Of a stretch of DNA of 64,000 nt, positions 34,210 to 38,934 are shown one piece after another (positions within the stretch are counted from its first letter, which is position 1; each line of letters starts with the position of its first letter). The position numbers and the translations under genes were made by a program. The stretch is from Geothrix fuzhouensis (GTDB lineage Bacteria; Acidobacteriota; Holophagae; Holophagales; Holophagaceae): contig NZ_JANHMQ010000001.1 in assembly GCF_024609325.1 (NCBI RefSeq), positions 620,001 to 684,000 of the forward strand. The letters run 5' to 3'. The notes under the pieces were generated by a model. The model had not been told where the DNA came from, ran no database searches, and was given only the letters and a program-made list of their open reading frames with translations.

Positions 34210-34697
34210 CCCGCAGCCCACTTCGATGGACCATCCCCTCTCTCCTGGTACTCCAGCTGCTCATGCTCTGGCTGCAGGGGGCCCAGCTGCACCGCCAGAA
34301 CCAGGTCCTTCAGGGCCTGCGTGAAGACATCCAGGCCCTCACAGAATCATTGGACAACAGTCAGGGTCCGGTTTCCGACAGTGACGACACCGAGGCGGTG
34401 CCCGCGAGCACCCCCCCCAAACTCCAGCCCCATGCGCACGTCGCGGTGCTCGGCATCCAGGAAGAGCAGGATGCGGCCGTCAAGGATTTGCAGGCCTCCC
34501 GTGAATCGGCCCAGAAGGCCGTGAAGGACGCCCGGGAAACCCAGTCCAAGATCTCCATCGAGGAGAACGCCAGGAAAGCGGAGGAAACCCGAAAGGTTCA
34601 AGCTGCCACAAGCTCCTGGACAAACTGGGCCTGGGCCGCCACGGGCCTGGTGGCGCTGGCCTTGGTGGCCCGCTCGTGGATTCGCCGGCGGGGTTGA
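34206..34697 (+). CDS. Uncharacterised coiled-coil protein with membrane segments at both ends
   Basis: 163 residues; the ATG overlaps the phosphatase stop (ATGA). A membrane segment near residues 9-25, a coiled-coil-like middle (NQVLQGLREDIQALTESLD, then ESAQKAVKDARETQSKISIEENARKAEETRK) and a second membrane segment near 137-155 ending WIRRRG. Both termini are thus probably anchored, with the helical middle on one side of the membrane. Its position between the phosphatase and a SirB1-like gene suggests shared work, but no function is known. Confidence 0.75.
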   Translation: MTRSPLRWTIPSLLVLQLLMLWLQGAQLHRQNQVLQGLREDIQALTESLDNSQGPVSDSDDTEAVPASTPPKLQPHAHVAVLGIQEEQDAAVKDLQASRESAQKAVKDARETQSKISIEENARKAEETRKVQAATSSWTNWAWAATGLVALALVARSWIRRRG

Positions 34698-35494
34698 TGT
34701 CCCTCCTGGAATACCTCCGCCTGGATCCGCACTGCCGGAACCTGGCCGAAGGCGCCATCCATGCGGTCGCCCCGGCCCTGGAAGACCCCGACCCGGCCCC
34801 CGTGATCATGCAACTGAATGAATGGGCCTTCGTCCTCGCTGGGCGCATGCCTCTGCCCTGGGACACCCACAAGGCCCTGGAGGCACTCAACCATCTGCTC
34901 TTCACCGAGCTTGGGTTCGAAGGCGACCGGGAGACCTACGATGATCCCCTGAACGCCTTGCTCCCGGCAGTGATGGCAAGGCGCAAGGGCCTGCCCATCG
35001 CCCTCTCCATCCTCTGGATCGATCTGGCCCGGCGACTGGGCTTTGACGCCGTGGGCGTAGGGTTGCCAGGACACTTCATCACTGCCCTGCGCGCCGGATC
35101 ATCCCTGCTCTGCTTTGACCCCTTCAATGGCGGGCGGGTCGTGGGCGAGGAAGGCGGAGCCGCTCTGGTGAAGGCCGCCAGTGCCGGTCGGATTACCTTC
35201 CACCGGGACATGCTTCGGCCCGCCACGGATCGCCAGATCCTCATCCGTCTCGTGCGCAACCTGCACCTGCGCTTTATGAATGCCGAGGACTGGGAGGAGG
35301 CGCTTTGGACGGCCACCCACCTTATCCTGCTGGATCCAGAGGATTCCCGGTCCCACAAGGAGCGTGCTTTCGTTCACCTCCAGCGGGAGGAACCCGGACC
35401 GGCTCTGCGCGACCTCCGCGAAGCCCTGCGCCTCAGCGTCGATCCCGACCCCGAGATCCAGGCGTGGCTCCAGCAGCTGGAGGCCTCGAGCTAG
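34697..35494 (+). CDS. SirB1/transglutaminase-like protein with C-terminal TPR-like tail
   Basis: 265 residues from the ATG overlapping the previous stop (TGATG). It matches the SirB1 family (PF13369-like): PLNALLPAVMARRKGLPIALSILWIDLARRLGF, then GVGLPGHFITAL, then a C-terminal TPR-like DWEEALWTATHLILLDPEDSRSHKERA. The transglutaminase cysteine is not evident (the equivalent position reads PIALS), as is normal in this family. Its role is not known. Its stop overlaps the convergent PYP-like gene by CTAG. Confidence 0.85.
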   Translation: MSLLEYLRLDPHCRNLAEGAIHAVAPALEDPDPAPVIMQLNEWAFVLAGRMPLPWDTHKALEALNHLLFTELGFEGDRETYDDPLNALLPAVMARRKGLPIALSILWIDLARRLGFDAVGVGLPGHFITALRAGSSLLCFDPFNGGRVVGEEGGAALVKAASAGRITFHRDMLRPATDRQILIRLVRNLHLRFMNAEDWEEALWTATHLILLDPEDSRSHKERAFVHLQREEPGPALRDLREALRLSVDPDPEIQAWLQQLEASS

Positions 35495-35937
35495 GCGTTC
35501 TGCCCGAGGCATTTCCGGACCGCGACAGTGACATCCTTCCCTTTGTGAAGAAAGACGATCACCACCCGGACCGGGCCATCTGGGAAGGGGAAGGTGAATT
35601 GAAAGGTTCGCGAAGGTTCGTTTCCATGGCAGAACTCTCGGAAGGCACCGAGAAAGGCCTGCACGGAGGTGCATGGCGCGATCTCGGTGAAGAAGTTCCG
35701 TCCGATCACACTCAAGGGCTCGCGTTTGGCGAGTCTGCTCTCCGCTTGGTTGTAGGCGAGGATGGTTCCATGCTCCGCCAGGACGATCACGCCGAACGGG
35801 AGGCCGTCCAGTTCCGTTGAGGAAAGATCCGGGATTCCCCGCAGATCGCGATAGCAGGTCCTGCAGATGCCGTGGGAATCCTCAGCCTCGCTTTGCCCGA
35901 TCAGGGCTCCACACCAGGCACACAACACATTTGGCAT
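35491..35937 (-). CDS. Photoactive yellow protein-like PAS protein with N-terminal zinc-finger-like module
   Basis: 148 residues. Residues 1-35 hold two CxxC pairs (Cys6/Cys9 and Cys25/Cys28), as in a small zinc ribbon. Residues 42-143 align by eye over the whole length with the photoactive yellow protein of Halorhodospira: LDGLPFGVIVL, ILAYNQAE, VIGRNFFTEIAPCT. The chromophore-site residues of PYP are conserved at the right spacing: Tyr62 (PYP Tyr42), Glu66 (Glu46), Arg72 (Arg52) and Cys89 (Cys69, the p-coumarate thioester site; 27 residues from the Tyr in both). Thr50 is replaced by Ala70. It may be a blue-light sensor or a PAS relative binding another ligand. No output domain is present. 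Confidence 0.85.
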   Translation of the reverse strand: MPNVLCAWCGALIGQSEAEDSHGICRTCYRDLRGIPDLSSTELDGLPFGVIVLAEHGTILAYNQAESRLAKREPLSVIGRNFFTEIAPCTSVQAFLGAFREFCHGNEPSRTFQFTFPFPDGPVRVVIVFLHKGKDVTVAVRKCLGQNA

Positions 35938-36001
35938 CGCAGCTCCTGACTGCTGAGTACCGCTCCCCGCGCACGGATCACCGACCGCTGTTGGCCGTTG
36001 A

Positions 36002-36385
36002 TTACCGGGCCGTGTCCACCATCTTGATCAAGGCTGCCTCAACTTCATGCGCAATGGGGAGCAGTGCGGGATCCTGGGATAGTCCTGCCAGCAGGTCGGA
36101 TGGGGGAATCAGTCCAATTCTCGTGTGCCCTTGCTCCGTGTAGACGGAAATACGGCAGGGCAGCGCCATGTTCAGGCGCAAGTCGAGGCCGAGGACTTTG
36201 GCCGCCTGGCCGGGGTTGCACACCTCAAACACGCGGCAGGCCTCGGCAAAGGGGAAACCCTTGCTACGCAACGTGTTGGCCAGGTCATGGACATGGAGCA
36301 CCCCGAAGCCCCCGGCCGTCACTGCGGCTTCTAGATCGGCCGAGGCCTGCTCGAACGGTTTACCGGATTCGACGATGTAGTACAT
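36002..36385 (-). CDS. DUF302 family protein
   Basis: 127 residues from the ATG at 36385, with GGAGGTGGAAG directly upstream. The DUF302 pattern is visible: an N-terminal MYYIVESGKPFEQASADLEAAV, the turn FGVLHVHDLANTLRSKG, and the conserved VFEVCNPGQAAKVL and LPCRISVY. The fold is a small alpha-beta domain of unknown function that may bind heme or a small ligand, and is often found near redox or sulfur genes. It lies between the PYP-like gene and maeB on the same strand. Confidence 0.85.
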   Translation of the reverse strand: MYYIVESGKPFEQASADLEAAVTAGGFGVLHVHDLANTLRSKGFPFAEACRVFEVCNPGQAAKVLGLDLRLNMALPCRISVYTEQGHTRIGLIPPSDLLAGLSQDPALLPIAHEVEAALIKMVDTAR

Positions 36386-36453
36386 CTTCCACCTCCAGTG
36401 GGTTCCACCACGGACCTGAGGCCGTGGGTTTCCGGGAGGCAACACTAACACGG

Positions 36454-36499: not shown

Positions 36500-38752
36500 C
36501 TACTTCTGCTGCGCTTCCACGACAGTGAGCGCCGTGAGGTGGATGATGTCATTCATGTCGCTGTGCCGCTGGAGCACATGGACCGGAGCCGCCATGCCGC
36601 AGGTGATGGGGCCGATGACTTCAGCGCCCGCCAGCCGCTGCACCAGCTTGTAGCCGATGTTCCCGCTGGTGAGGTCGGGGAATACCAGCACGTTCGGGCC
36701 ACCCGGCAGGTCCACCCAGGGGTAGTCCTCGGAGAGGATGCCATCACCCAGGGCGGTGTCCGCCTGCATCTCGCCGTCACATTTGAGGTCGGGGCGCTGG
36801 GCCTTCACGATCTCCACGGCCTTCTGGACCTTGCGGACCAACGGATGGTCCACGCTGCCGAAATCAGAGAAGGAGAGCATGGCGACCCTGGGATCCATGT
36901 TGAAGGTGTCTTTGGCCAGGTCCGCTGTCAGGAGGGCGATCTCGGCCAGCTGCTCACTGCTGGGCTCGATGTTCATGGTGGTGTCGGCGAAGAACAGCAC
37001 GCGGTTCTTCAGCACCATGGTGTAGACACCGCAGGCGCGCTTGACGCCCTTCCGGGTGCCGATGACTTCCAGGCAGGGCCGGATGGTGTCGGGGTAGTAC
37101 ATCGTCAGGCCGGCGATCAAGCCATCGGCCTTGCCCATGCGGCACATCAGAGCGCCGAAGTAGATGCGCTCCTGCACCTTGCGGCTGGCCTCGAAGCTGG
37201 TCACACCGCGGCGCTTCCGCAGCTCATAGAAAGCCTCTTCGGCCTCCTTGCGCCAGGCCACGCTACCGGGGTCCAGGATCTCAATGCCACCGAGCGAGAT
37301 GCCGTGGTCAGCCGCCACAGCCTTCACCTTAGCCGGGTCGCCCAGGAGGATGGGAATACAGATGCCCTCCTCCACCATCTGGGAGACGGCCTGCAGGATC
37401 AGCGGATGGTCGCCCTCGGGGAAGACCACGCGCTTGGGGTTGGCCTTGGCCCGGTGGATGACGCTGCGGATCACATCCTTGCTGCGGCCCTGGAGCCCCT
37501 CCAGGCGCTCCTTGTAGGCCTGCATGTCGGCGATGGGCTGCTTGGCCACGCCCGTCTCCATGGCGGCCTTGGCGACGGCCGGGGCCACCCACAGCAGCAC
37601 CCGGGGGTCGAAGGGCTTGGGGATGATGTACTCAGGGCCGAAGGTGAACTTCTGGCCCGAGTAGGCCTTCACCACAGAATCAGGCACCTCTTCCTTGGCC
37701 AGGGCGGCCAGCGCCTTGGCGGCGGCCAGCTTCATGGGCTCGTTGATCTCCGAGGCGCGCACATCCAAGGCGCCGCGGAAGATGAAGGGGAAGCCAAGGA
37801 CGTTATTCACCTGGTTGGGGTAGTCGCTGCGGCCCGTGGCCATGATGATGTCGTCGCGCGTGGCTTTGGCAGTGGGGTAGTCGATCTCAGGATCGGGGTT
37901 GGCCATGGCGAAAACGATGGGGTTCTTGGCCATCGCCTTGATCATGTCGGGCGTCAGGACGCCTTTGCTGGAGCAGCCCACGAACACATCGGCCCCGACG
38001 ATGACATCGCCCAAGGTGCGGAGGTCCGACTTCTTGATGAACCGCTCCTTGTAGACGTTCATGCCCTCGGTGCGACCTTCGTAGACAAGGCCCTTGGTAT
38101 CGCAGAGCCAAAGGTTCTCCAGCTTCACGCCCGCAGCGATCATCATGTTCGCGCAGGCGATGGCCGCAGCCCCCGCGCCGCTGAACACCACCTTCATGTC
38201 GCCCAGCTTCTTCCCGATCAACTCGGACGCATTCATGAGGGCCGCGGTGCTGATGATGGCCGTGCCGTGCTGGTCGTCGTGGAAGACGGGGATATTCATC
38301 TCCTTCTTCAGACGGGTTTCGATCTCGAAGCACTCGGGGGCCTTGATGTCTTCGAGGTTGATGCCGCCGAAGGTGGGCTCCAGAGCCTTCACCACTTGGC
38401 AGAAGCGATCAACATCCAGCTCGTTCACTTCGATGTCGAACACGTCGATGTCGGCGAAACGCTTGAAGAGCACGCCCTTGCCTTCCATCACGGGTTTACC
38501 GGCGAGGGCGCCGATGTTGCCGAGGCCCAGTACGGCCGTGCCGTTGGAGATCACGGCCACCAGGTTGCCCTTGGCGGTGTACTTGTACGCGTCTTCAGGG
38601 TTCTTCTCGATCTCAAGGCAGGGCTCCGCCACTCCAGGCGTGTAGGCATTGGAGAGATCCCGGGCGGTGGAGCAGGGCTTGGTGGCGACGACTTCGATCT
38701 TGCCCTTCCTTCCCTGCGAATGGTAATCGAGGGCTTCCTGCTTGCGTTTCAT
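36500..38752 (-). CDS. maeB: NADP-dependent malic enzyme fused to a phosphotransacetylase domain (MaeB type)
   Basis: 750 residues from the ATG at 38752, with AAGGAG seven bases upstream. It decarboxylates malate to pyruvate. The N-terminal malic enzyme part (to about residue 425) has [19 protein letters not shown], the catalytic [12 protein letters not shown] and the NADP-binding [13 protein letters not shown]. The C-terminal part (about 430-750) is phosphotransacetylase-like ([16 protein letters not shown], then [13 protein letters not shown] and [14 protein letters not shown]). In MaeB the second domain is usually regulatory, responding to acetyl-CoA, rather than catalytic. Confidence 0.94.
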
Positions 38753-38934
38753 GGCCACACTCCTTGAAATGAGTGCCCTATCAATGGGCTGAATGCCACC
38801 CAGCATACACCTCGTATTACGCAATTATGCCTGCAAGGTCATCAATCACTCCCTTTGTTGCACGGATCACAAGAGATGCTTTCACAGCGGACCGCCCTGG
38901 ATTACGATCCAACGACCCCCCTCCCGGAGCTTCC

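What the first reader, a model, noticed from the sequence alone, without database searches (positions are those of the whole stretch)
35491..35937. Photoactive yellow protein-like blue-light sensor domain with a zinc-finger-like cap
A 148-residue protein reads as a full PYP-fold PAS domain with Cys, Tyr, Glu and Arg of the PYP chromophore site all kept, and with the Tyr-to-Cys spacing (27 residues) identical to PYP. Only Thr50 is changed (to Ala). An N-terminal CxxC...CxxC module precedes it, which the classical PYP does not have. PYPs are rare, and a version with a zinc-binding cap, here beside a DUF302 gene, would be a new architecture. Many PAS proteins share parts of this pattern, so chromophore binding is not proven.
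Basis: partly seen in the sequence, partly recalled or inferred. Interest (0 to 1): 0.75.

Follow-up and report, generated by a model that had tools for sequence, protein, structure and literature searches.

The report
Zinc-capped blue-light sensor in Geothrix
A small gene of a soil bacterium (Geothrix) encodes a relative of photoactive yellow protein, a well-studied blue-light sensor, with an unusual cysteine-rich, probably metal-binding cap in place of the normal front end; the light pocket is intact, but the usual genes for making its pigment were not found, so light sensing is likely but unproven.

Summary
The gene is real: a 148-aa minus-strand ORF with a Shine-Dalgarno-like AGGAG, dN/dS 0.13-0.30 against 11 relatives, and capped copies in 18 of 47 genomes of the genus, its own included. 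It is a photoactive yellow protein (PYP) homologue in the broad sense: TIGR02373 94 bits against 42 for generic PAS. It lies below the TIGR02373 cut-off, as do 6 of 8 other PYP relatives scanned. Eight of nine published pocket residues are identical; Tyr42, Glu46 and Cys69 are kept in 18 of 18 capped sequences. The "changed" Thr50-to-Ala is the published consensus. The four cap cysteines are invariant in 18 of 18; one capped PYP lies outside the family. Neither of two PYP surveys mentions zinc or Geothrix in its main text. Against: the only lyase found is histidine ammonia-lyase, no PYP-type CoA ligase passes, while 9 of 10 control PYP genomes have a non-histidine-type lyase; no signalling partner specific to it was found. 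A new variant of a known kind.

The parts
35491..35937 (-). pyp-like gene, 148 aa, cap + PYP-type PAS domain
   Evidence: dN/dS 0.13-0.30 in 11 of 11 pairwise comparisons made
35943..35947 (-). Shine-Dalgarno-like AGGAG, 5 nt before the ATG
   Evidence: read from the sequence
35839..35937 (-). N-terminal cap, residues 1-33, CxxC-x15-CxxC (Cys6, 9, 25, 28)
   Evidence: four Cys invariant in 18 of 18 rows of A2; x15 spacing in 17 of 18 capped PYPs listed, x17 in L120; Pfam DZR_2 weak, 9 of 18 members at E up to 1, best 0.0021
35515..35826 (-). PYP-type PAS core, residues 38-141
   Evidence: TIGR02373 residues 37-129, 94.3 bits; PF00989 42.1 bits
35752..35754 (-). Tyr62 = PYP Tyr42
   Evidence: Tyr in 18 of 18
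35740..35742 (-). Glu66 = PYP Glu46
   Evidence: Glu in 18 of 18
35671..35673 (-). Cys89 = PYP Cys69, chromophore thioester site in PYP
   Evidence: Cys in 18 of 18
36002..36451 (-). DUF302 gene, 64 nt upstream, same strand (neighbour, not a conserved partner)
   Evidence: within the held stretch of 7 of 14 main-clade loci, 5 of them in this position
36500..38824 (-). malic-enzyme-like gene (named by eye), same strand
   Evidence: on this side of pyp in 13 of 14 main-clade loci
34676..35494 (+). transglutaminase-core + TPR gene, convergent, overlaps the pyp stop by 4 nt
   Evidence: on this side of pyp in 13 of 14 main-clade loci

Best explanation
It is a PYP-family blue-light photoreceptor of Geothrix in which the N-terminal stretch that caps the PAS domain in classical PYP is replaced by a small four-cysteine, probably zinc-binding, ribbon. 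Inferred mechanism: p-coumarate taken up from decaying plant matter (no dedicated enzymes to make it were found in the 97% complete genome) is activated by a general CoA ligase and bound through Cys89 (PYP Cys69), with Tyr62 and Glu66 holding the phenolate. Blue light isomerises it and changes the N-terminal side of the domain. The ribbon, sitting where classical PYP changes on illumination, then carries the signal to an unknown partner. Shown: homology, intact pocket, conserved cap, purifying selection. Inferred: chromophore, light response, zinc, signal path.
For: Profile and sequence: TIGR02373 94.3 bits E=5.5e-27 against PF00989 42.1 bits; TIGR02373 is matched by 18 of 18 A2 members. Of 34 PDB sequences listed, 33 are PYPs or PYP-derived tags, one is unrelated at E 0.85. 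Pocket: 8 of 9 published pocket residues identical and the ninth Val66->Ile; Tyr42, Glu46, Phe62, Ala67, Pro68, Cys69 and Phe96 kept in 18 of 18 (pocket list from PMC12826048). Ala50, Leu49 and Ser47 are family consensus. Cap: Cys6/9/25/28 invariant in 18 of 18; last cap Cys to Cys69 is 61 residues in the 17 Holophagaceae sequences listed. Selection: dN/dS 0.13-0.30. The phmmer alignment to Hhal PYP starts at its residue 18, so the cap takes the place of the N-terminal region, to which HDX-MS shows the light signal spreading in classical PYP (PMC4477167, passages). The main clade is one starred group of 13 rows, 98/97.
Against: No TAL found: the only PF00221 gene is histidine ammonia-lyase (TIGR01225 633.5 bits, cut-off 539.15; flexirubin TAL model 306.9, cut-off 700). 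Of the 18 genomes with a capped gene, 16 have one full-length lyase of the same 600-617-bit class, one a fragment, one none, whereas 9 of 10 control PYP genomes hold a lyase outside that class. No TIGR02372 ligase over the cut-off here or in 77 family genomes, while 3 of 10 controls have a full-length match (319-336 bits). Score under the TIGR02373 cut-off. Tyr94 is Phe and Met100 is absent in 18 of 18, unlike classical PYP. Neither of the two characterised PYPs in the tree falls in its clade. With PAS outgroups the capped rows were not one group and L120 joined an outgroup row (long branches). In HDX the N-terminus of classical PYP was slightly protected, not loosened, by light. No signalling partner specific to pyp was found. 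No capped gene was found in 29 of 47 genus members, some of them incomplete. The host is not known to live in light (recalled).
Confidence: 0.55

Rival explanations
1. A PYP-derived domain that no longer senses light: Cys89 and the cap cysteines act as a thiol/redox or metal sensor in an Fe(III)-reducing anaerobe (host physiology recalled).
For: No dedicated chromophore supply found, unlike 9 of 10 control PYP genomes for a non-histidine-type lyase. A cysteine-rich cap. A similar cap sits on non-PYP PAS proteins that carry further cysteines (L125, L131, L132). A light-to-redox switch has been proposed for some methylobacterial PYPs (PMC9664959).
Against: In that proposed switch Cys69 is replaced, and in some Tyr42 too, whereas here Tyr42, Glu46 and Cys69 are kept in 18 of 18. 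Tyr and Glu hold the phenolate chromophore in PYP; a bare thiol sensor would not be expected to need them (inference).
Confidence: 0.25
2. The pocket binds another aromatic thioester or free phenolic ligand (for example a lignin-derived cinnamate other than p-coumarate), so it is a ligand sensor or a sensor with a different pigment.
For: Intact pocket with no TAL or dedicated ligase found; Tyr94 and Met100 changed in 18 of 18.
Against: No direct evidence; the surveys describe p-coumarate as the PYP chromophore.
Confidence: 0.14
3. An ordinary PAS domain that resembles PYP by chance or convergence.
For: Pfam assigns generic PAS.
Against: TIGR02373 scores above the PAS profiles (94 against 42 bits); 33 of 34 PDB sequences listed are PYPs or PYP-derived; near-identical pocket set.
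Confidence: 0.02
4. A decaying or non-functional gene.
For: Patchy distribution, capped genes in 18 of 47 genomes of the genus; its slot is empty or holds another ORF in 7 of 7 relatives without the gene whose slot was held whole.
Against: dN/dS 0.13-0.30 in 11 of 11 comparisons made, no stop inside, cap cysteines and pocket invariant.
Confidence: 0.04

Closest known systems
Ppr-PYP domain, Rhodospirillum centenum (PDB 1mzu)
   Same: PYP-type PAS core with Tyr42, Glu46, Cys69 and the FFTEvAPCT motif; best PDB match E=1.2e-20
   Different: [quoted passage not shown] no cysteine cap in the aligned stretch; Met100 present
Classical single-domain PYP, Halorhodospira halophila (1nwz and others)
   Same: Pocket 8 of 9 identical, Tyr-Cys distance 27
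   Different: No CxxC-x15-CxxC (its N-terminus is recalled); Thr50, Tyr94, Met100 differ, Trp119 lost here; operon with TAL and pCL (PMC12826048)
Other Acidobacteriota PYPs: short uncapped (L118, L123, L134-L137, L140), EAL-PYP (L022, L119), PYP-V4R (L043, L121), PYP-kinase (L029, L041); fusion partners named by eye
   Same: Same PYP core
   Different: No cap seen in these; the longer ones carry other domains
Cap-PAS proteins L125, L131, L132, and C-terminal CxxC...HGICPxC tails of two sensors in the same genome (L101, L103)
   Same: Two CxxC knuckles, the second as HGICxxC or YGVCxxC
   Different: No PYP core beside them; loop between the knuckles is 21 residues in the cap-PAS proteins and longer in the tails, not 15

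Membership tests
PYP family, broad sense (Xing et al. 2022, PMC9664959: PYP homologue with Cys69) | Cys at position 69 | tested here: met
   Cys89; 18 of 18 capped sequences
PYP family, broad sense | Tyr42 and Glu46 | tested here: met
   18 of 18 each
PYP family, broad sense | Closer to PYP than to other PAS families | tested here: met
   94.3 bits TIGR02373 against 42.1 PF00989 and 33.5 PF08448; PDB hits. The tree with PAS outgroups is unreliable for this point (long outgroup branches)
PYP family, broad sense | Match to the PAS_PYP profile of Xing et al. | not testable with these tools
TIGR02373 photo_yellow equivalog | Score over the curated cut-off 143.05 | tested here: not met
   94.3 bits. 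Not filed in this narrow group; 6 of 8 other PYP relatives scanned also fall short (79-126 bits), 2 of 8 and the Ppr fragment pass; the survey says the model covers 20% of its BLAST-found homologues
PYP photoreceptor (function) | p-coumaroyl thioester and photocycle | not testable with these tools
   needs purified protein
PYP photoreceptor (function) | Chromophore supply genes TAL and pCL in the genome | tested here: not met
   not strictly defining: the survey states TAL in 5% and pCL in 32% of its predicted pyp operons
Zinc ribbon | Two CxxC knuckles, invariant | tested here: met
   18 of 18
Zinc ribbon | Match to a zinc-ribbon profile over its cut-off | tested here: not met
   for P0001, DZR_2 13.1 bits, cut-off 27; 9 of 18 members at E up to 1, best 0.0021
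Zinc ribbon | Bound zinc | not testable with these tools

The most novel reading that the evidence does not exclude
A photoreceptor class in which a metal ribbon has taken the place of PYP's light-responsive N-terminal cap, so that light releases, or metal/redox state locks, a zinc-ribbon effector: a two-input (light and metal/redox) switch in an iron-reducing anaerobe that borrows its pigment from plant litter.
Probability: 0.22. Interest if true: 0.75.

Novelty: new variant of a known kind. Interest (0 to 1): 0.5.

Why it matters
How single-domain PYPs pass their signal on is described as unknown in both surveys (PMC9664959; PMC12826048 abstract). A PYP whose N-terminal region has been exchanged for a conserved cysteine module gives a concrete test object: does the cap respond to light, and what binds it? 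It would also extend PYP light sensing to Geothrix, apparently without its own chromophore synthesis. The 2025 survey classed only proteins over 200 aa as multidomain, so an architecture of this size would not appear among its multidomain proteins.

Tried and rejected
Rejected: Thr50->Ala as a warning sign (Ala50 is the consensus). DUF302 as a functional partner (within the held stretch of 7 of 14 main-clade loci, in two orders). The SpoIIE-type phosphatase gene two genes beyond pyp's neighbour as a pyp-specific partner (it is also there in 8 of 8 pyp-less relatives whose locus was found). An internal promoter or terminator at pyp (0 promoter-like sites; 1 terminator-like site against 0.8 expected, inside the gene). 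The histidine ammonia-lyase as a hidden TAL.

Led nowhere: plasmid search (4 records, best places under 60% identity, none over 80% of the query). Tree with PAS outgroups (long branches). Context of capped PYPs outside the main clade (no shared neighbour seen; crude gene calls). Paper searches: PYP with Geothrix 0 papers, PYP with zinc ribbon 0, Geothrix with photoreceptor 0, PYP/p-coumaric acid/uptake/Leptospira 0; Geothrix with coumar 6 and xanthopsin with zinc 5, none on the point as far as titles and abstract starts show. One paper asked for was not held.

Dropped rows: the 18 sequences of the residue counts are 17 of the 19 capped Holophagaceae genes found, plus L120; left out were L034 (near-copy of L031) and the second capped gene of G048 (L159, fetched later), while L024 and L040 are copies of L009 and L008. 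The dN/dS run took 11 of the other 13 main-clade genes (not L034, L035). The tree also left out L019, L021, L044 and the outgroup PAS rows. L045, L046 and L126 gave empty cuts. In some searches at most 9 and 15 first-look candidates per genome were scored, so genes may have been missed.

Full report
Observation. The window holds a complete 148-aa ORF on the minus strand at 35491..35937, preceded by AGGAG 5 nt before the ATG. It is co-directional with a DUF302 gene (36002..36451) and a malic-enzyme-like gene (36500..38824), and convergent with a transglutaminase/TPR gene whose 3' end overlaps the pyp stop by 4 nt. The genome is Geothrix-like: the nearest named records are G. campi (87% identity) and G. 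fermentans (77%). Codon comparison with 11 of the other 13 main-clade genes gives dN/dS of 0.13-0.30 in 11 of 11, so the gene is under purifying selection.

What it is. Residues 37-129 match TIGR02373 (photoactive yellow protein) with 94.3 bits, E=5.5e-27, against 42.1 bits for PF00989. Of 34 PDB sequences listed 33 are PYPs or PYP-derived tags, best Ppr-PYP 1mzu at 1.2e-20; one is unrelated at E 0.85. The curated cut-off of TIGR02373 (143.05) is not met. As calibration, 6 of 8 other PYP relatives scanned fail it too (79-126 bits); 2 of 8 and the Ppr fragment pass. Xing et al. state that the model covers 20% of the PYP homologues they found by BLAST (PMC9664959; I read the Results section). 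I therefore file it in the broad PYP family, not in the equivalog.

Pocket. Of the nine published pocket positions (PMC12826048, section 5), eight are identical and Val66 is Ile. Over 18 capped sequences Tyr42, Glu46, Phe62, Ala67, Pro68, Cys69 and Phe96 are kept in 18 of 18. Real departures are Tyr94->Phe (18 of 18), loss of Met100 (0 of 18 keep it) and loss of the Trp119 segment (read from the alignments).

Cap. Cys6, Cys9, Cys25 and Cys28 are invariant in 18 of 18 rows of alignment A2. The inner spacing is 15 and the distance from the last cap Cys to Cys69 is 61 in the 17 Holophagaceae sequences listed; L120 differs (17 and 66). No Pfam ribbon passes its cut-off for P0001 (DZR_2 best E 0.0021 in 9 of 18 members), so zinc binding is inferred from the cysteine pattern. 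The cap looks like a borrowed module. The pattern HGICxxC occurs three times in this genome (0 in the reversed control), the other two as C-terminal tails of a two-component-propeller protein and a dCache-like sensor (dCache under its cut-off). In Acidobacteriota a similar cap also precedes non-PYP PAS domains (L125, L131, L132). Homology of these caps is suggested by the motif, not shown.

Distribution. TIGR02373 matches 35 of 77 family genomes at E<=0.001. By my count of that table 24 of the 77 have a match over 80 bits. Capped genes occur in 18 of 47 genomes of the genus, 19 genes, and none was seen in the 30 genomes of other genera in the family. Strong matches there, and in one Geothrix genome (L023), are uncapped or fused. 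In 396 genomes drawn from the phylum, the matches over 65 bits outside the family were 6 genes in 5 genomes; 1 of the 6, L120, has the cap. In 250 genomes drawn from L120's family, 7 had a PYP at E<=1e-12 (8 genes), 1 of 8 capped. Only part of the first-look candidates was scored in both searches. In the tree without outgroups the 18 capped sequences lie on one side of a branch with weak support, 50/80, and the 13 main-clade sequences have 98/97; 17 without L120 held together are not rejected (p-AU 0.216). In the tree with PAS outgroups the capped rows were not one group and L120 joined an outgroup row, with long-branch warnings. A single origin of the cap is possible but not shown.

Context. 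In 13 of 14 main-clade loci, the window included, the gene sits between the malic-enzyme-like gene and the transglutaminase gene. DUF302 is near it within the held stretch in 7 of 14: 5 between malic-enzyme-like gene and pyp, 2 on the other side. Of the 7 held whole, two have a short gap of about 110 nt and five have another small, lipoprotein-like ORF in the slot. A SpoIIE-type phosphatase gene close by is there with or without pyp. The gene thus behaves as a single-gene cassette. Outside the main clade the neighbours differ (crude gene calls).

Chromophore supply. The genome (97.45% complete) shows one aromatic ammonia-lyase gene. It is histidine ammonia-lyase (TIGR01225 633.5 bits, cut-off 539.15; PDB best match histidine ammonia-lyase 6v6h). 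Of the 18 genomes with capped genes, 16 have one full-length lyase of 600-617 bits, one (G025) a fragment, one (G024, 72% complete) none; the motif RSHAAG was read in the 8 of these whose loci I held. No TIGR02372 ligase is over the cut-off in the family genomes (0 of 77). Their substrates are untested. So the lack of a dedicated ligase is common among PYP genomes, but the lack of a non-histidine-type lyase sets Geothrix apart and speaks against home-made p-coumarate. The survey states TAL in 5% and pCL in 32% of its predicted pyp operons and allows for uptake of p-coumarate. In two other genera of the family (g7, g9), 7 of 10 genomes have a second lyase within about 0.8 kb of a CoA-ligase-like match.

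Mechanism. Shown: homology, intact pocket, conserved cap, selection. Inferred: p-coumarate from the environment, general CoA ligase, thioester at Cys89, light-driven isomerisation, a change at the N-terminal side (HDX-MS in classical PYP shows the signal reaching the N-terminal capping region, with slight protection of the N-terminus; PMC4477167, passages), output through the ribbon. I give 0.55 to a working blue-light sensor and lower odds to a thiol/metal sensor or another ligand.

Novelty. PYPs in Acidobacteriota are known (2.4% of 984), as are many PYP fusions. Neither survey's main text contains "zinc", "Geothrix" or "holophag". Open-library searches for PYP with Geothrix and PYP with zinc ribbon returned 0 papers. 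Supplements were not readable, so individual Geothrix sequences may be in their lists. Of PMC9664959 I saw abstract, Results and passages; of PMC12826048 abstract, sections 4, 5, 6, 8 and passages. I call it a new variant of a known kind.

Noticed in passing
L022, L044 (G060, G062), L119 (G247): PYP fused to the C-terminus of an EAL-type domain (named by eye), in two families of the phylum; the survey's table lists EAL fusions with PYP at the N-terminus.
   Followed up: partly
L125, L131, L132: A similar four-cysteine cap before non-PYP PAS domains that carry further cysteines; a possibly unnamed cap-PAS family.
   Followed up: partly
L101, L103 (own genome, C1:560683 and C2:239068): CxxC...HGICPxC tails at the C-termini of two other sensor proteins (Reg_prop propeller; dCache-like); a recurrent ribbon with no zinc-ribbon Pfam match.
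   Followed up: partly
L151-L154 (G065, G060, G062, G070; genera g7, g9): A second aromatic lyase (motif RYHGCG) with a CoA-ligase-like match within about 0.8 kb, in genomes that also hold PYP fusions; could supply p-coumaroyl-CoA or belong to a pigment cluster.
   Followed up: partly
L142, L143, L144, L148, L149: The slot between the malic-enzyme-like and transglutaminase genes holds a lipoprotein-like ORF (by eye) in five Geothrix genomes without pyp: a variable gene slot.
   Followed up: partly
L159 4355-4801 (G048:C5): A second, divergent capped PYP (CxxC...SSSICxxC) in G048, with a hemerythrin-like ORF about 1.4 kb downstream (by eye).
   Followed up: no
L029, L041 (G070, G065): PYP at the N-terminal side of a short histidine-kinase-like protein (by eye) in another genus of the same family.
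   Followed up: no
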